Part shown: piece by piece, positions 2 through 6,691 of the stretch
How the letters are laid out: each line of letters opens with the position of its first letter
How positions within the stretch are numbered: the first letter of the stretch is position 1
Source: a virus
IMG/VR virus record: IMGVR_UViG_3300043403_000097
Span: 1 to 21,012 of that record
Length of the DNA stretch: 21,012 bases
Direction: 5' to 3' (one strand)
Translations under genes and position numbers: made by a program
The notes under the pieces: model-generated
Database searches by the model: none
What the model was told of the DNA's origin: nothing
Seen by the model: the letters and a program-made list of their open reading frames with translations, nothing else

Positions 2-928
2 ACTAAATCAAATTTTACAAAGTATGCAAACGAAATTGATATTCTCTCAGGTGGATTCCCCTGCCAACCATACAGCAGCGCAGGTAAGCGGCTTGGAAAA
101 GAAGATGAACGCCATTTATGGCCGGAAATGCTTAGAGCAGTACGGGAGATTTCCCCGGTCTACATTGTGGGGGAGAACGTTAGCGGCCTTACTAATTGGA
201 ACGGGGGAATGGTATTCGACGAAGTGCAGGCTGATATGGAAAATGAAGGCTACGAAGTGCTCCCGTTTTTACTTCCAGCTTGCGGTGTCGGCGCTCCCCA
301 CAGAAGGGATAGAATTTGGTTTATTGGCTACTCCGCAAGCAATAGACGGAAACGGAACGGGCAGAGAATTGAGATTGAAAAGGGATTGCAACAGAGACCC
401 GAACCAGCCGGGCAGTTGGCGGGGGGATTTGAAGGACTATGCAATGCAGGGGATGCTACCGACACCGGAAGCAAGCAACCACAAGAATGGACACCGGAGC
501 GAAACGGCAAGGATACAAAGGAAAAAGGAACAGGGTTGGACAATAGGATTAAACGACAGGGCAACATTGGGGCTATTGCCAACACCGGATTGCAGCGACA
601 GGCGGAGCGACAACAGCACCCAATGGGGATTGAGCAAATATGCGAAGAACGAATTATTACCAACACCAATGCAGCCAGGGAACGGGGGAACAAATGGAAA
701 AGCGAAAACAAAAGAAATATATGGGACGGGTTCCCAACTAAACCCCCAGTATGTAGCCGAAATGATGGGCTTTCCGACAGATTGGACGGAGTTACCTTTC
801 CTAAGTGGCGAAGCGAAAGTTTAAAAGCATTTGGTAACGCAATAGTGCCACAGGTAGCGTATGAGATATTTAAAGTAATAAATGCGATGGCTAACACACC
901 CCACACCGCCGCCAGCGATATTGTATAA
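2..928 (+). CDS. C5-cytosine DNA methyltransferase, 5' end cut by window
   Basis: Transfers a methyl group from S-adenosylmethionine to carbon 5 of cytosine in a short DNA target. The frame is open from the first bases, so the N-terminal SAM-binding part lies outside the window. Visible in order: the catalytic loop GGFPCQPYSSAG with its Cys (bases 50-85), ENVSGL (motif VI region), PHRRDRIWFIG (motif VIII), a long target-recognition region rich in ANTG, TNTN and TDTG units, and a final SLKAFGNAIVPQVAYEIF (motif X). The stop TAA lies inside the left core of the following attC-like site, so this is the gene of cassette 1. No partner restriction enzyme is visible, so it may be a solitary phage or cassette methylase. 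A long second frame overlaps it (24-824). The family call is secure; the target sequence is unknown. Confidence 0.93.
   Translation, partial: TKSNFTKYANEIDILSGGFPCQPYSSAGKRLGKEDERHLWPEMLRAVREISPVYIVGENVSGLTNWNGGMVFDEVQADMENEGYEVLPFLLPACGVGAPHRRDRIWFIGYSASNRRKRNGQRIEIEKGLQQRPEPAGQLAGGFEGLCNAGDATDTGSKQPQEWTPERNGKDTKEKGTGLDNRIKRQGNIGAIANTGLQRQAERQQHPMGIEQICEERIITNTNAARERGNKWKSENKRNIWDGFPTKPPVCSRNDGLSDRLDGVTFPKWRSESLKAFGNAIVPQVAYEIFKVINAMANTPHTAASDIV
24..824 (+). CDS. Overlapping alternate-frame ORF in the methyltransferase gene
   Basis: A 266-codon frame, +1 relative to the methyltransferase, lying wholly inside it. It does not read like a random shadow. It contains WYSTKCRLIWKMKAT and FYFQLAVSALPTEG, then four spaced units of the type LLPTPxxxD (LLATPQAID, MLPTPEASN, LLPTPDCSD, LLPTPMQPG), and ends with LNPQYVAEMMGFPTDWTELPF. 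From memory, proteins with this order (WxSTxCxLTWK, LLPTP repeats, LNPxxVxxMMGFPxxWTxL) are annotated in many phages and Bacteroidota beside C5 methylases; this could not be checked here. Each LPTP unit here is the same DNA as an ANT or TNT unit of the methylase frame. It may be a true overlapping gene, a target-recognition domain moved between frames, or a frame kept open by constraint on the other frame. No clear ribosome binding site precedes base 24. Confidence 0.42.
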   Translation: MQTKLIFSQVDSPANHTAAQVSGLEKKMNAIYGRKCLEQYGRFPRSTLWGRTLAALLIGTGEWYSTKCRLIWKMKATKCSRFYFQLAVSALPTEGIEFGLLATPQAIDGNGTGRELRLKRDCNRDPNQPGSWRGDLKDYAMQGMLPTPEASNHKNGHRSETARIQRKKEQGWTIGLNDRATLGLLPTPDCSDRRSDNSTQWGLSKYAKNELLPTPMQPGNGGTNGKAKTKEIYGTGSQLNPQYVAEMMGFPTDWTELPFLSGEAKV

Positions 929-1019
929 CGGTGGCGATTGGCGAAGTAAAAGCCTTGCACTACCGTTAAAATTTAGCACTACACTTGATGGCTTTTATTT
1001 TGCCAATTGCGTGTTATAG
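923..1019 (+). repeat. attC-like recombination site A (end of cassette 1)
   Basis: A 97-bp imperfect palindrome between the methyltransferase and the next gene. The left core GTATAAC (923-929) and right core GTTATAG (1013-1019) match the layout of integron R'' and R' boxes. The arms GCGATTGGCGAAGTAAAAGCC (934-954) and 990-1010 pair at 18 of 21 positions, and the other three are G-T wobbles. The loop is 35 bases. It is about 88% identical to site C at 2794-2890. The stop of the methyltransferase is inside the left core. Confidence 0.78.
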
Positions 1020-1061
1020 CCAGTGCTTTTTACGGAATTATTTATTTATAAAAACAATAAA

Positions 1062-1523
1062 ATGGAACAAAAAGAAATGTCAATTAGTGGTTTATATTAC
1101 CGCTACAAAAAAACCTCCGATGATGATATTCGGAAGCATTTAGGCAACATCAAAATAGTGGTGTTAGAAAATAAAGGTGTTGGAACAATACAAGGTTATT
1201 ACCCACTTTCAGAAGAAGCAATGACTAAAATTTTAGAGAAACCGAGAAATGTTTCTTTAAGTTTTGATGCTACCGAAACAGCAGACAAGCCAATTGAGAA
1301 CTTGAAAGAATATAAGACCATTCAATATTTAGTAAAATCAACTTCTCGTTTTTTTCTAAAGCCTGATGTGGGTGAGATTTTTGACCAAATACATTACAGA
1401 GATTTATTTGATAGCAAAATAAAAGCTATTCAGTATTTGTCAGGTGCATACGAAACACTTCCTGATACAGATGGGGAACATTTTGTTATGGAAGCTAAAC
1501 TTTTGGTTGATGTTGGTTCTTAG
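1062..1523 (+). CDS. Hypothetical protein of cassette 2
   Basis: I do not recognise this 153-aa protein. It is soluble, with no signal peptide or membrane segment. It begins MEQKEMSISGLYYRYKK and mixes charged residues with hydrophobic strands, for example IKIVVLENKGVGTIQGYYPL. The frame is open further upstream to a GTG at 1023, but that would start beside the attC core. The ATG at 1062 follows an A-rich stretch, usual for Bacteroidota, and is preferred. It is the only gene of a cassette whose ends (1013 and 1536) are complementary, and it is markedly more AT-rich than the phage genes on the right. Its function is unknown; cassette genes are often accessory or defensive, but nothing in the sequence shows that here. 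Confidence 0.8.
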   Translation: MEQKEMSISGLYYRYKKTSDDDIRKHLGNIKIVVLENKGVGTIQGYYPLSEEAMTKILEKPRNVSLSFDATETADKPIENLKEYKTIQYLVKSTSRFFLKPDVGEIFDQIHYRDLFDSKIKAIQYLSGAYETLPDTDGEHFVMEAKLLVDVGS

Positions 1524-1529
1524 CATTGG

Positions 1530-1648
1530 CTATAACGTCTGCGGCTTTGTGCAGGCCGTTATATCGCTTGGCTTTGCACTTAGTTGACAAATAGATGAAG
1601 TTGGGATTTAGGTGTCAGACGGGGCTTGCACAAAACCGTTTGTTATAT
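1530..1648 (+). repeat. attC-like recombination site B (end of cassette 2)
   Basis: A 119-bp imperfect palindrome with left core CTATAAC (1530-1536) and right core GTTATAT (1642-1648). The left arm at 1541-1559 (CGGCTTTGTGCAGGCC) pairs with the right arm at 1619-1639 (GGGGCTTGCACAAAACCG) with small bulges. Its sequence differs from sites A and C but its architecture is the same, as in integrons, where attC sites share structure more than sequence. The left core is the reverse complement of the start of its own cassette (GTTATAG at 1013). Confidence 0.75.
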
Positions 1649-1697
1649 GTTGTTTTTTTGTGCTGCGGAGTATTTTAAACTTTAAAGTATTATACTG

Positions 1698-1934
1698 ATG
1701 AAACTTTTTGAAGAGCCTGAAAAATGGCAAGAACATTGGGAAGGGATGCCTGAATTTATACAGGAAAAACAAAAGCCTTATGCTCAAATTATTTTCAGAT
1801 TTGAGAACGAAGAAGATTTACAAGACTTCGCAAAAGTTATAGGGCAAAAGCTAACTAAGAAAACTAAAAGCTGTTGGCATCCGTTTAAATCACATTGGGG
1901 GAACGCTAAAAAAGTATGGGAAGATGAAGCCTAA
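1698..1934 (+). CDS. Small hypothetical protein paired with the glycosyltransferase
   Basis: A 78-aa soluble acidic protein beginning MKLFEEPEKWQEHWEGMPEF, with a central alpha/beta-looking stretch (PYAQIIFRFENEEDLQDFAKVIGQ) and a tail TKKTKSCWHPF. I recall similar small proteins (need-type strand, then an xDFAxxIGQ helix, then TKSxWxP) encoded next to phage glycosyltransferases of the type that follows, but cannot check this. Its last 11 bases overlap the start of the glycosyltransferase, so the two are translationally coupled and likely work together, perhaps as subunit or adaptor. It shares cassette 3 with that gene. Confidence 0.82.
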   Translation: MKLFEEPEKWQEHWEGMPEFIQEKQKPYAQIIFRFENEEDLQDFAKVIGQKLTKKTKSCWHPFKSHWGNAKKVWEDEA

Positions 1935-2799
1935 ATATCCTGTTTATATTATTTCTAAAGGCAGGGCAAATAGCTGCCTTACTGCAAGGGAATTAAAATT
2001 AATGAACGTACCTTTTAAGCTTGTGATTGAGCCACAGGAATACGAAGATTATAAGCATATTACTGATGATATTTTAGTATTGCCATTTAGTAATTTAGGG
2101 CAAGGCTCAATACCTGCAAGGAATTTCGTTTGGGAACATTCAATTAATGCAGGATTTGAAAGGCATTGGATTTTGGATGATAATATTGAGGGCTTCCATA
2201 GGCTACATAAAAATATGAAGCCAAAAGTAACAAGCGGTACAATTTTTAGGTGTGCAGAAGATTTTACAGATAGATATGAGAATATAGGAATATCGGGGTT
2301 TAACTATTATTCGTTTTGCAAAACTACTGATAGTGTGCCACCATATTATTTGAACACCCGTATTTACTCCTGCATCCTTATTAAAAACGATTTGCCTTAT
2401 CGGTGGCGTGGTAGGTACAATGAAGATACAGATTTGAGCCTACGGGCTTTAAAAGATGGTTGGTGTACTATTTTATTCAATGCTTTCCTTGCCGGCAAAG
2501 TAACTACAATGAGAATGAAAGGTGGCAATACTGACAATGTTTATACTGATGAAGATAACAGGATGAAATTTGCAAAGGCTTTAGAAGAACTGCACCCTGA
2601 TATTGTAAAGGTTACATGGAAATTTAACAGGTGGCATCATCAAGTAGATTACAGGGTATTTAAGAATAACCGATTAATAAAAAAGCCTGATTGTATAATT
2701 GAAAAAGATAAGTATAGGATGGTTCTAAAAAATGTTGAAATATATAACGTCAAGCCGAAAAATGATATGCAGTGTGGCGTGGGAAAAAATAACATATAA
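1924..2799 (+). CDS. TET-associated-type GT-A glycosyltransferase
   Basis: A 291-aa protein with a GT-A-like start (YPVYIISKGRANSCLTARELK), a VVEPQEY-like strand end (LVIEPQEYEDY), FSNLGQGSIPARNFVWEH, and WILDDNI with DDN at residues 85-87 as the likely metal and nucleotide-sugar site. Later come YSCILIKNDLPYRWRGRYNEDTDLSLR and MKGGN. This order matches the phage glycosyltransferases linked to TET/JBP base-modification systems (TAGT family), which are proposed to add sugars to modified DNA bases. The family assignment is from memory; the substrate is inferred. Its neighbour in the array is a cytosine methyltransferase, so DNA modification is the natural guess. No TET-like dioxygenase is visible. 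The stop TAA lies in the left core of attC site C. Confidence 0.72.
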   Translation: MKPKYPVYIISKGRANSCLTARELKLMNVPFKLVIEPQEYEDYKHITDDILVLPFSNLGQGSIPARNFVWEHSINAGFERHWILDDNIEGFHRLHKNMKPKVTSGTIFRCAEDFTDRYENIGISGFNYYSFCKTTDSVPPYYLNTRIYSCILIKNDLPYRWRGRYNEDTDLSLRALKDGWCTILFNAFLAGKVTTMRMKGGNTDNVYTDEDNRMKFAKALEELHPDIVKVTWKFNRWHHQVDYRVFKNNRLIKKPDCIIEKDKYRMVLKNVEIYNVKPKNDMQCGVGKNNI

Positions 2800-2890
2800 C
2801 GGTGGCGATTGGCGAAGTAAAAGCCTACCACTACCGTTGATTTTCAGCACTACGCTCGATGGCTTTTATTTTGCCAATTGCGTGTTAGGC
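2794..2890 (+). repeat. attC-like recombination site C (end of cassette 3)
   Basis: A 97-bp imperfect palindrome with left core ATATAAC (2794-2800) and right core GTTAGGC (2884-2890), the latter a perfect GTTRRRY. The stem arms are identical to those of site A and about 12 of 97 bases differ overall, mostly in the loop and the outer cores. The left core extended outward is the reverse complement of the start of its own cassette at 1642, with one mismatch in 17. Confidence 0.8.
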
Positions 2891-2935
2891 GATGCCCTTT
2901 CGAGAATTTAATTAATAACAATAAATAAAAAAACA

Positions 2936-3349
2936 ATGGAATTAGAAGTAAAACATTTAGCACCTTATTTGCCTTATAGTTTAAAACTACAATATGTAGA
3001 AAGAGAAAAGGTAATATCAACTGGCATAATTCAAAGTATTAGCCAAAACAATTCAGAAACACACCCAACGAGGGTAAGTATTAACTATCAAGGTGAAGAA
3101 TATATTTGGATGTATAAACCAATGTTGAGAAGAAAAACACACTTACATACCTTGCAAAGCGAAATATTAATTAGATGGGGCGGTGGCTTGTCTGATAAAG
3201 CAAAAGCACAATGGTTGAAAGAAGTAACCGATGATATGCTTTATTCAGCATTTAATTCACTTCGTTACGATTTTGTCGAATTGATGTTGGAAAATCATAT
3301 TGACGTATTCGGTCTTATAGATGCTGGACTTGCTACGGAGATGTCATAG
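2936..3349 (+). CDS. Conserved phage-type hypothetical protein of cassette 4
   Basis: A 137-aa protein starting MELEVKHLAPYLPYSLKLQY and ending ENHIDVFGLIDAGLATEMS. The two ends match a hypothetical family I recall as common in Bacteroidota phages, prophages and conjugative elements (opening LAPYLPYGLK, ending FDVFGLIxxGLA). Its function is unknown. The middle has a beta-rich part (TRVSINYQGEEYIWMYKPML), compatible with a small nucleic-acid-binding or beta-barrel fold, but that is a guess. It sits in the last cassette, directly before the truncated cassette end and the tyrosine recombinase. Confidence 0.82.
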   Translation: MELEVKHLAPYLPYSLKLQYVEREKVISTGIIQSISQNNSETHPTRVSINYQGEEYIWMYKPMLRRKTHLHTLQSEILIRWGGGLSDKAKAQWLKEVTDDMLYSAFNSLRYDFVELMLENHIDVFGLIDAGLATEMS

Positions 3350-3362
3350 GGTTTCGCCTAAC
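3347..3362 (+). repeat. Truncated attC-like end of cassette 4
   Basis: The sequence ending TTTCGCCTAAC (core GCCTAAC at 3356-3362, a perfect RYYYAAC) is the reverse complement of the start of the same cassette (GTTAGGCGA at 2884), with 13 of 15 bases matching when extended outward. No hairpin arms and no right core follow before the tyrosine recombinase. The array therefore seems to end in a half site. Confidence 0.55.
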
Positions 3363-3414
3363 TACTATATGTAATCAACGTATCATAATTAATTAATAAC
3401 CAAAAACTTACCCC

Positions 3415-4248
3415 ATGCAAATTCCTAAGCATATAGAACTATACAGGAAAGACCTGATGCTAAAAAACTATGCTTCATCAAGCATTGATAACTACGTTAG
3501 TCAGGTTAAATGTTTCCTCGAATATTTTAATGGAAAGTTCACCGAGCCTGCTAAAGTAAATGAATCAGCTATTAAAGATTGGCTACTAATGGCTAATTCT
3601 ATTAATGGCAGGAAGCATAGGCTATCAGCATTAAAATTGTTCTATGCCTTAACGGTTAAACAGCCAATGAAATTTAAGTACATTGAGTATCCCCGTTCTG
3701 AAAAGAAACTGCCAATTGTTTTATCCCAGGAGGAAATTCAGAAAATGTTTGACGTTTGCGAAAACCTGAAACATAAAGCAATTCTTGCATTATTATATAG
3801 TGCCGGGTTAAGAGTATCTGAATTGATAAACCTTAAATGGGCTAATCTTGATAGGTCGCGTAAAATAATAAACATCATTGGTGCTAAGGGAAATAAAGAT
3901 AGGCAGGTGCCGCTTGCATCAGAACTAATAACCGTGCTTGAAAAATACTACCTGGCATACCATTCTATTGAGTATGTTTTCAATGGTCAAAAGGAACTAC
4001 AATATAGCGATAGAAGTGTTTTGCAGGTTGTAAAGCAGCTTGCCAATAAAGCAGGAATAAAGAAAGACGTTTGGACACACCTGATCAGGCATTGCAGCTT
4101 TACCCACATGGTGGAAGCTGGTACGGATATAAACATAATCCAAAAAATTGCCGGCCACAACAACGTAAAAACAACCCATCTGTACACCCACTTATCTCAT
4201 AACATCATCAGCAAGGTTTATTCGCCAATATCTAATATGCGTATGTAA
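3415..4248 (+). CDS. Tyrosine site-specific recombinase, XerC/D-like
   Basis: Cuts and rejoins DNA at specific sites through a phosphotyrosine intermediate. Its 277 aa comprise an N-terminal SAM-like core-binding domain (about 1-90) and a C-terminal catalytic domain. Likely catalytic residues: R133 in LLYSAGLRVSEL, K158 in GAKGNKDR, H222 and R225 in HLIRH, H248 in AGHNN, and nucleophile Y257 in HLYTHL. All are present, so it should be active. It lacks the extra segment that marks integron integrases (IntI). It starts 52 bp after the half site that ends the cassette array and reads away from it, so it is either the phage or element integrase, or a Xer-like enzyme acting on the cassettes. A cognate att site could not be identified. 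Confidence 0.94.
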   Translation: MQIPKHIELYRKDLMLKNYASSSIDNYVSQVKCFLEYFNGKFTEPAKVNESAIKDWLLMANSINGRKHRLSALKLFYALTVKQPMKFKYIEYPRSEKKLPIVLSQEEIQKMFDVCENLKHKAILALLYSAGLRVSELINLKWANLDRSRKIINIIGAKGNKDRQVPLASELITVLEKYYLAYHSIEYVFNGQKELQYSDRSVLQVVKQLANKAGIKKDVWTHLIRHCSFTHMVEAGTDINIIQKIAGHNNVKTTHLYTHLSHNIISKVYSPISNMRM

Positions 4249-4696: not shown

Positions 4697-5124
4697 AACT
4701 AATTATCTTTTTACTCCTAACTAATACCTGTTTCGCCCAAATCGTTTACTCAGGCGGTGCCGGGCTATCTCTCAATTTTGTTAGTGTAAACGCCTTTGCC
4801 GAAGCAGGTACAAGGGTAGGTTCTGCCGGTTATATCGGCGCTCAGGTTAATTTCAGATCATCTAACTACCCAGGATTAAGCGCCGCCCCCATTATCGGAT
4901 ACGCATGGAGTTGGAATAACAACAAAATACATGAGCTTACCACATTATTCTACGCCAAAGCAGATTACCCCATAATGGCTAATAGCGGTTACAAATCATA
5001 TTCCCACAACCCTTTCGGCTTCGGTGTCCGGCACTACATTTATAACACCCTTGTTGACCTTTCATACCAGCAATCACAAGTTCAACTCACAATAGGATAT
5101 TCACTAAATAAAATCTATAAGTAA
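4693..5124 (+). CDS. Secreted, probably outer-membrane beta-barrel-like protein
   Basis: 143 aa with a signal peptide (MKLIIFLLLTNTCFAQ, likely cut after CFA). The remainder alternates small and aromatic residues in strand-like runs (GGAGLSLNFVSVNAFAEAG, YIGAQVNFRSS, GFGVRHYIYNTLVDLSYQQ) and ends in a strand with C-terminal IYK. This pattern suits a small outer-membrane or surface beta-barrel of Bacteroidota. It overlaps both neighbours by 1-4 bases. In a prophage such a gene may alter the lysogen surface or exclude other phages; that is inference. Confidence 0.8.
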   Translation: MKLIIFLLLTNTCFAQIVYSGGAGLSLNFVSVNAFAEAGTRVGSAGYIGAQVNFRSSNYPGLSAAPIIGYAWSWNNNKIHELTTLFYAKADYPIMANSGYKSYSHNPFGFGVRHYIYNTLVDLSYQQSQVQLTIGYSLNKIYK

Positions 5125-5789
5125 TGAAACTAATACCAATTTTATTTAAACCCGAAATGGTTGCTGCTATTCTGGATGGCAGAAAAACTATGACAAGAAG
5201 GGTAATGAAATTAAAGCACCTTAACGGACATGAAGTAAAATCTATTCATAAAGATGGCTCCGGTAAGGGATGGATCGCATGGTCACCGCGTGAAGTAAGC
5301 GCGGAGGAAACGGCAAAACTTTACCCCGGTGAAGAAGGGTTTAAATGCCCTTACGGTAATCCAGGTGATATCCTTTGGGTCCGGGAAACATGGCGATTTA
5401 TTGACCATAGTGGGACCGGTATAAAATACTTTTACAAAGCAGGTGCATGTAAAACAGATTTAAATGATAGGTCTATAAATTGGAAGCCATCCTTATTTAT
5501 GCCAAAAGACGCCTGCCGCCTATTCCTTGAAATTACTAATTTCAGGGTTGAACGTCTGCAGGATATAAATGAAGCCGATGCCACTGCAGAAGGGTGCATA
5601 AGTACCGCCATTCTTAATAAAGAAGGGGATGACTATACCGGCTTATTCGCTTCTGAGCACTTCCATAATCTTTGGGAATCCATCAACGGGAAAGAATCAT
5701 GGAAAGAAAACCCATGGTTATGGGTCGTTGAATTTAAAGTATCTGCCCGTAACGATTATTTTACTAACCAAAAAGTACCTTCCAAATGA
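5124..5789 (+). CDS. ASCH-domain-like phage protein
   Basis: 221 aa. The order PILFKPEMVAAILDGRKTMTRR, CPYGNPGDILWVRETW, FYKAG, WKPSLFMPKDACRLFLEITNFRVERLQDINEADATAEG, FHNLWESING and NPWLWVVEF is that of a widespread phage family with an ASCH (RNA/ligand-binding, PUA-like) fold. Family members are annotated as hypothetical or ASCH-domain protein; the ASCH fold is thought to bind RNA or modified nucleotides. The length is normal. It is coupled by overlapping start and stop codons to both neighbours. The biochemical role is not established. Confidence 0.87.
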   Translation: MKLIPILFKPEMVAAILDGRKTMTRRVMKLKHLNGHEVKSIHKDGSGKGWIAWSPREVSAEETAKLYPGEEGFKCPYGNPGDILWVRETWRFIDHSGTGIKYFYKAGACKTDLNDRSINWKPSLFMPKDACRLFLEITNFRVERLQDINEADATAEGCISTAILNKEGDDYTGLFASEHFHNLWESINGKESWKENPWLWVVEFKVSARNDYFTNQKVPSK

Positions 5790-6340: not shown

Positions 6341-6691
6341 ATGATACAAGCAAACGAATTAAGGATTGGGAACTGGGTGTTTAACCCTAAAAATAACTTT
6401 CATTTTAAAATAGATGGATTCCACATTTTAGACTTATGGGCGGGCGAAGATTGCAAATTTATTCAACCAATTCCCTTAACCCCTGAAATATTGGAAAAGG
6501 CGGGGTTTGAAAAGAATGGTAAGCGTTTTTCAAAAGACTGGTTTTATTTATGGTCGGATAATTACAATATTGTTTTTGCTTTAGCCGAAATGGAAGAATC
6601 AATAGGCAAGTATTTAAACATTGAATACGTTCACCAACTTCAAAACCTTTACTTCGATTTAACAGGTCAGGAATTAAATATACAACTATGA
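6341..6691 (+). CDS. Conserved phage hypothetical protein, NELRIGNWV type
   Basis: 116 aa with IQANELRIGNWVFNP at the N-terminus, PIPLTPEILEKAGFEKNG in the middle and YVHQLQNLYFDLTGQEL at the C-terminus. This is a very recognisable family of Bacteroidota phages and prophages, often present in several copies per genome and with no known function. Its 3' end (QELNIQL) is nearly the same at DNA level as that of the next gene. Its stop overlaps the next start by ATGA. Confidence 0.88.
   Translation: MIQANELRIGNWVFNPKNNFHFKIDGFHILDLWAGEDCKFIQPIPLTPEILEKAGFEKNGKRFSKDWFYLWSDNYNIVFALAEMEESIGKYLNIEYVHQLQNLYFDLTGQELNIQL

What the first reader, a model, noticed from the sequence alone, without database searches (positions are those of the whole stretch)
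923..3362. Integron-type cassette array whose cassette ends are mutually complementary
Seen: three attC-like palindromes and one half site follow the genes. For each complete cassette, the bases at its start are the reverse complement of the bases at its end, well beyond the 7-bp core. Cassette 2: GTTATAGCCAGTGC at 1013 against GCATTGGCTATAAC at 1523, 13 of 14. Cassette 3: start at 1642 against end at 2784-2800, 16 of 17. Cassette 4: GTTAGGCGATGCCCT at 2884 against the end at 3348-3362, 13 of 15. Within a linear site the two cores match poorly because they come from different cassettes. This is what integron cassette circles predict. Known: attC sites have R'' and R' boxes and a structured single strand. 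Inferred: a mobile cassette array in a Bacteroidota phage or prophage with no IntI in view.
Basis: partly seen in the sequence, partly recalled or inferred. Interest (0 to 1): 0.88.

Follow-up and report, generated by a model that had tools for sequence, protein, structure and literature searches.

The report
Phage integron with reversed gene cassettes
A bacteriophage fragment carries its own gene-capture platform (a recombinase, its docking site and a row of swappable gene cassettes) that is built like a bacterial integron but with the cassettes in the opposite polarity and a different recombinase, and the same arrangement recurs in dozens of other environmental phage contigs, where most recognisable cargo genes modify DNA.

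Summary
In detail: three palindromic sites, a half site, and cassette ends complementary over 15 nt (14/15, 14/15, 13/15; only these three of 508 GTTA..TAAC pairs in the window reach 13). Position 11 does not pair normally: T at the cassette end, usually G at the start. The rule holds in dozens of other viral contigs. The half site at 3347-3373 is attI-like, and the gene 52 nt beyond it (3415-4248) is a tyrosine recombinase. 73 of 81 loci examined (window included) have the same half site before the start codon. Near-identical phages carry different or reshuffled cassettes, broken exactly at TAAC|. In five of six informative cases only the palindrome 5' of a gene stays with it; in the sixth both flanks are shared. 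So the unit is attC-gene, reversed relative to canonical integrons, and genes point toward the recombinase. The recombinase clade lacks the ~41-residue IntI insertion. Folding favours the gene strand, and the excised circle over the array. Integrons and attC clusters in phages are published, and class 1 cassettes also show extended end complementarity. The autonomous, reversed, IntI-free phage version appears undescribed in the library searched. Recombination itself is inferred.

The parts
2..928 (+). C5 cytosine DNA methyltransferase (cut by the window edge), the gene left of the first palindrome; whether it is a cassette or a fixed phage gene cannot be told because its start is outside the window
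   Evidence: Pfam PF00145 E 1.9e-34; its end ...ATATTGTATAAC has the T-N6-TAAC pattern
930..1012 (+). attC-like palindrome 1, travels with cassette 1
   Evidence: Perfect 21-bp inner stem with three G.T pairs on the gene strand; same family in 24 other viral contigs
1013..1536 (+). Cassette 1 body from GTTA start arm to TAAC end arm; ORF 1062-1523, unknown function
   Evidence: Ends complementary 14/15; no Pfam match
1537..1641 (+). attC-like palindrome 2 (different sequence family), travels with cassette 2
   Evidence: 15 of 16 stem positions paired
1642..2800 (+). Cassette 2 body; ORFs 1698-1934 (unknown) and 1924-2799 (TET-associated glycosyltransferase, TAGT)
   Evidence: Ends complementary 14/15 and 16/17; PF20691 E 2.2e-47
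2801..2883 (+). attC-like palindrome 3, same family as palindrome 1, travels with cassette 3
   Evidence: 91% identical to palindrome 1 over the 93-nt repeat
2884..3362 (+). Cassette 3 body, the one beside attI; ORF 2936-3349, PHROG 10841, unknown function
   Evidence: Ends complementary 13/15; PHROG match E 2.5e-14
3347..3373 (+). attI-like half site: cassette end arm TAGGGTTTCGCCTAAC joined to the conserved arm TACTATATGTA
   Evidence: Same arrangement in 73 of 81 loci; base table
3415..4248 (+). Tyrosine recombinase, 277 aa, presumed cassette recombinase
   Evidence: PF00589 E 3.4e-38; NF040815 194 bits, under its 220 cut-off; fold nearest XerA 5hxy Z 22.8 and IntI4 2a3v Z 20.4; clade

Best explanation
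This is a phage-borne integron-like cassette platform. The tyrosine recombinase at 3415-4248 inserts small circular cassettes into an attI-like site just upstream of its own start codon. Each cassette is a palindromic attC-like site followed by one or two genes and ending in a cassette-specific T-N6-TAAC arm. In the circle that arm faces the complementary GTTA-N6-G start arm across the palindrome and gives an extended hairpin; in the array the two outer arms at each site come from different cassettes and mismatch. Most likely the gene strand folds and is the recombining strand, exchange occurs within TAAC, and the longer hairpin in the circle favours capture over loss. Cassettes therefore stack between the phage gene upstream and attI, with their genes pointing toward the recombinase. 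Recognisable cargo is mostly DNA-modifying enzymes, so the platform probably lets phages swap anti-restriction genes. Shown by comparison: unit boundaries, attI association, polarity, cassette shuffling and strand bias of the stems. Inferred: catalysis by this recombinase, single-strand recombination, the circle-versus-array switch and the anti-restriction role.
For: attI-like half site upstream of the recombinase in 73 of 81 loci, 77 of which have 80 nt or more of upstream sequence. Contigs 99.985% identical over 6,856 bp from attI rightward have unrelated cassettes to its left (L112/L113). L113 and L115 share four cassettes at 98.8-100% identity in a different order; in the three whose right end is a called site or attI (A, B, D) the break is exactly at TAAC| on both sides. 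Five of six informative contexts keep only the left palindrome with the gene, one keeps both flanks, none keeps only the right. 49 of 51 cassette ORFs read toward the recombinase. Cassette ends complementary in 56 of 67 last cassettes versus 4 of 62 controls. Inner stems: 112 with G.T excess on the gene strand against 1 the other way. Circle form more stable than array form in 130 of 132 sites, gene strand more stable than its complement in 131 of 132. Cargo: 25 of 89 cassette proteins at most match methyltransferase families N6_N4, C5, Dam, MT-A70 or the Mom modification family.
Against: No recombination, circle or read-level junction was observed. The exact empty attI derived from L112/L113/L115 was not found. 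11 of 67 last cassettes lack a recognisable partner start. 19 of 59 loci with 2 kb or more upstream have no palindrome passing the caller. The informative contexts are few and two come from one phage group. The circle-stability comparison is partly built in, because units were chosen for complementary ends. The recombinase could also serve another purpose such as phage integration.
Confidence: 0.85

Rival explanations
1. An ordinary IntI-dependent cassette array without integrase (CALIN), picked up from a bacterial integron and moved by a host or superinfecting IntI; the neighbouring recombinase is an unrelated phage integrase.
For: CALINs in phages are published, and IntI1 integrated five of six tested phage attC sites (PMC9892861). 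Core AAC/GTT pattern and palindrome size fit attC. Many site-1 contigs show no recombinase in the part held, and P12002L carries such cassettes with no recombinase annotated.
Against: The recombinase sits at a conserved attI-like site directly at the array end in 73 of 81 loci. The palindrome moves with the gene downstream of it, opposite to IntI cassettes.
Confidence: 0.08
2. The recombinase is the phage's own lysogeny integrase and the half site is attP; the cassette array beside it is spread by homologous recombination between phages.
For: A tyrosine recombinase beside its attachment site is the usual phage arrangement (general knowledge); phages recombine often.
Against: Breaks fall exactly at TAAC between otherwise unrelated sequences, shared cassettes are reordered, and a 550-nt cassette is shared at 95% between two unrelated phage contigs (L082/L083). 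None of this is expected from homologous exchange.
Confidence: 0.05
3. The palindromes are transcription terminators or RNA elements and their gene-strand fold is selected for RNA.
For: The gene strand forms the better hairpin with G.T pairs, as an RNA would. The hairpins lie between genes.
Against: Cassette-specific complementarity between start and end hundreds of bases apart, breakpoints at TAAC|, half sites without a hairpin beside the recombinase and shuffled gene order are not explained. Both roles could coexist.
Confidence: 0.02

Closest known systems
Integrons (intI - attI - cassettes with attC; class 1 and chromosomal)
   Same: Recombinase gene beside attI, array of promiscuous single-gene cassettes, palindromic sites with AAC/GTT cores, cassette-specific arms that match in the circle; class 1 cassettes share extended end complementarity. 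Relative to the recombination polarity the recombinase is divergent from the array, as in canonical integrons.
   Different: The site lies 5' of the gene in the mobile unit, genes point toward the recombinase, the recombinase lacks the IntI insertion and forms another clade, spacers between outer and inner stem are mostly unequal (about 5 vs 1-2 nt), and the gene strand folds better.
Phage integrons and CALINs of Qi et al. 2023 (PMC9892861)
   Same: Cassette arrays in phages, methyltransferase cargo. Polaribacter phage P12002L holds sites and end arms of the present type.
   Different: That work found complete integrons with bacterial-type IntI, one integrase without cassettes, or arrays without integrase; it remarked on divergent attC directions in P12002L. 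In the passages read it names no dedicated non-IntI recombinase with its own attI and no reversed polarity.
XerA / XerC / XerD tyrosine recombinases
   Same: Size, domain layout, no IntI-type insertion, best profile and fold scores.
   Different: Scores are below the equivalog cut-offs. Known Xer enzymes resolve chromosome dimers at dif sites (general knowledge); this clade sits beside cassette arrays.

Membership tests
Integron (strict, IntI-based) | IntI-type integrase with the extra insertion before the HxxR motif | tested here: not met
   Distance from the first Arg motif to HxxRH is 86-92 residues versus 132-134 in three IntI proteins; IntI form a separate supported clade; TIGR02249 159 bits against a cut-off of 265 and matched in two pieces
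Integron (strict, IntI-based) | attI site beside the recombinase gene where cassettes enter | tested here: met
   73 of 81 loci; right arm shared, left arm supplied by the last cassette; entry there is inferred from L112/L113/L114/L115 differences
Integron (strict, IntI-based) | Cassette = gene followed by its attC, entering in the orientation that puts the gene start next to attI | tested here: not met
   The palindrome 5' of the gene moves with it, and the gene end abuts attI; definition of the canonical cassette from PMC2674596
Integron (strict, IntI-based) | Palindromic recombination sites with RYYYAAC / GTTRRRY cores 57-141 bp apart | tested here: met
   (T/C)AAC and GTT(A/G) cores with inner stems; window sites about 97-119 bp including cores; the RRRY part is only loosely followed. 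Size range from PMC3053210
Integron (strict, IntI-based) | Folded single strand of attC is the recombining form | not testable with these tools
   Only folding energies and strand bias were computed
CALIN (array without integrase) | No recombinase associated with the array | tested here: not met
   Recombinase 52 nt from the half site in the window and beside the array in most relatives
XerA-type recombinase (NF040815) or XerD | Equivalog score cut-off | tested here: not met
   194 bits against 220 for NF040815, 174 against 330 for XerD
XerA-type recombinase (NF040815) or XerD | Acts on a dif site of the host chromosome | not tested
   No dif-like site was sought

The most novel reading that the evidence does not exclude
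A second kind of integron, encoded by phages: a recombinase clade without the IntI insertion acts on the folded coding strand of cassettes whose polarity is reversed, and a cassette-specific 15-bp arm, complete only in the excised circle, biases the reaction toward capture. Phages of many lineages would share a common pool of such cassettes, rich in DNA-modification genes.
Probability: 0.5. Interest if true: 0.9.

Novelty: new variant of a known kind. Interest (0 to 1): 0.82.

Why it matters
It would give phages their own gene-capture platform, independent of host IntI, with cargo suited to evading restriction. It would show that the integron principle works with inverted cassette polarity and without the IntI-specific insertion, which bears on how integrons evolved and on what makes their recombination strand-specific. 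It also turns the extended end complementarity of cassettes, seen here in class 1 cassettes too, into a testable idea about why circles integrate rather than stay out.

Tried and rejected
Rfam at gathering threshold found only a tRNA and no attC family. There is no nucleotide match to palindrome 1 in isolated phages, and no isolated-phage recombinase is close (best listed 34% identity). The exact empty attI was not found. The idea that extended end complementarity is unique to this array was rejected, because class 1 cassettes have it. The first strand-bias count (265:32) was biased because the site caller accepts G.T pairs, so it was redone with a symmetric caller. Most of the chromosomal relatives examined in Flavobacteriales (mostly 345-387 aa) showed no attI-like motif or cassette sites nearby; L183 has an attI-like half site and L201/L205 a related motif, so the system is probably not strictly viral. 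Terminase and portal searches matched only some contigs. The weak PHROG 'toxin' label on cassette 1 (E 0.0018) was not used. The second structure prediction, the covariance-model tools and the remaining viral scans were not needed.

Full report
OBSERVATION. The window is a 21,012-base linear IMG/VR virus record with phage genes: RecT, SbcC-like, replication initiation, DnaB and KilAC anti-repressor. Palindromes lie at 930-1012, 1537-1641 and 2801-2883.

RECURRENCE. The right arm of palindrome 1 occurs in 24 other viral contigs and in 3 contigs of the genome collection. Whole sites align at 86-95% identity with mostly different sequence on the left. A systematic caller found many further palindromes of other sequence families in the same contigs, in arrays of several to more than ten units (for example G006, G009, G017).

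END RULE. The start of a cassette (GTTANNNNNNGNNNN) is the reverse complement of its end (NNNNTNNNNNNTAAC), with sequence specific to each cassette. Over 52 different cassettes selected for at least 11/16, positions 1-15 match at 65-100% except position 11 (2%: the end has T, the start usually G), and positions 16-20 match at 15-25%. In 67 loci with an identified attI and at least 700 nt upstream, 56 last cassettes find a partner start with at least 12/15, versus 4 of 62 with swapped ends; a palindrome directly precedes that start in 50 of 56. Class 1 cassettes show the same principle over about 12 nt: aadA2, qacL, aadB and aac(6')-Ib match over their first 12 nt, others less.

RECOMBINASE AND attI. 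The gene at 3415-4248 is a tyrosine recombinase. Its first four viral relatives all carry a cassette end joined to a TAYYATWTGT-like arm upstream of the start codon. Six of the contigs searched that carry palindrome family 1, the window included, have such a recombinase on the same strand; in the five others a TAAC end arm lies just upstream of it, with a TATTATATGT-like arm in three of them (G002, G008, G009) and a more diverged one in G006 and G017. An alignment search found 295 encoded relatives in IMG/VR, of which the best 80 were fetched. With the window, 73 of 81 have the half site. Its base table shows T at 98% ten bases before the final C, then TAAC, then TA(C/T)TATATGTA. Profile and fold comparisons put the protein nearest XerA and IntI4, but the stretch that holds the IntI insertion is about 41 residues shorter than in three IntI proteins, and the clade is separate.

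POLARITY AND MOBILITY. L112 and L113 are 99.985% identical over 6,856 bp from attI rightward, with unrelated cassettes to the left and a common outer flank. L113 and L115 share four cassettes at 98.8-100% identity in a different order. Read base by base for three of them, identity begins at TAAC before the palindrome and ends at TAAC after the gene; the next palindrome to the right, or attI, differs. Over all loci six deduplicated contexts were informative: five keep only the left site, one keeps both flanks, none keeps only the right. 49 of 51 cassette ORFs read toward the recombinase. The canonical cassette is defined as running from the first T of R' to the G of the next R', with attC after the gene (PMC2674596), and bottom-strand choice is held to orient cassettes for expression from Pc (PMC11023631). 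Here the unit is the reverse. Seen from the other strand, the recombinase, attI and array have the canonical divergent layout; only the genes inside the cassettes are turned round.

STRUCTURE. With a caller that treats G.T and A.C alike, 112 inner stems have more G.T than A.C on the gene strand and 1 the reverse. With DNA parameters the circle form is more stable than the array form on the gene strand in 130 of 132 sites (mean -26.2 vs -17.8 kcal/mol; random-end control -18.0), and the gene strand is more stable than its complement in 131 of 132. The circle-array comparison is partly built in because units were chosen for complementary ends, and the site caller used there favours the gene strand; one search is the fair test of strand.

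CARGO. Of 89 cassette proteins, 12 match N6/N4 methyltransferases, 5 C5 methyltransferases, 4 Dam, 2 Mom, 2 MT-A70, 1 TAGT and 1 PAPS reductase. In the window, cassette 2 encodes a TAGT glycosyltransferase and a C5 methyltransferase precedes the first palindrome. An anti-restriction role is inferred.

LITERATURE. Qi et al. 2023 (PMC9892861) reported 3 complete integrons, one integrase without cassettes and 17 CALINs in phages, and IntI1 integrated five of six tested phage attC sites. Their Polaribacter phage P12002L carries sites and end arms of the present type on the strand of its methyltransferase genes. IntegronFinder 2.0 reports very few complete integrons in the Bacteroidetes group (PMC9024848). 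Searches of the open library found no description of a dedicated phage recombinase with an attI of this kind or of reversed cassettes; the library lacks most subscription papers and all bioRxiv preprints.

LIMITS. No recombination was observed. The empty attI was not found. Terminase matches support phage origin for only part of the contigs beyond IMG/VR's own call. Some relatives lie on cellular contigs (L183, possibly L201 and L205). Membership in IntI-based integrons fails on two tested features, which lowers the claim 'is an integron' but not the claim 'works like one'.

Noticed in passing
window:8143-8787 (+): A serine recombinase (resolvase domain) lies 4 kb downstream of the array, so the phage has two unrelated site-specific recombinases; which one, if either, serves lysogeny is unknown.
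   Followed up: no
window:4300-7530 (+): A run of small genes downstream of the recombinase on the same strand, some matching PHROGs of unknown function (for example 5124-5789, phrog_874; 6341-6691, phrog_10066); it may be transcribed together with the array and recombinase.
   Followed up: no
window:16094-16162 (-): A tRNA gene within the phage region.
   Followed up: no
L209 (Flavobacteriaceae MAG, G026 C42:110000-128000): Two palindromes, one of the window's family, on a 152-kb contig from a cellular bin with no recombinase hit on that contig; prophage or chromosomal cassettes.
   Followed up: partly
L183 (G110) upstream of its recombinase: A 4.1-Mb Flavobacteriales genome contig has the same half site (GCACTTGCAGGTAAC joined to TATTATATAT) before a 270-aa recombinase, directly after a gene whose end reads like a C5 methyltransferase.
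   Followed up: partly
L219 (Polaribacter phage P12002L), about 29-41 kb, minus strand: Cassettes of the present type, with the position-11 G/T rule, surround methyltransferase and Mom-like genes of a published lytic phage; a cultured model for experiments.
   Followed up: partly
L181, L178, L179 (class 1 integrons on plasmids): Complementarity of cassette ends reaches about 12 nt in several class 1 resistance cassettes, well beyond the 7-bp core; no description of this was found in the papers searched.
   Followed up: partly
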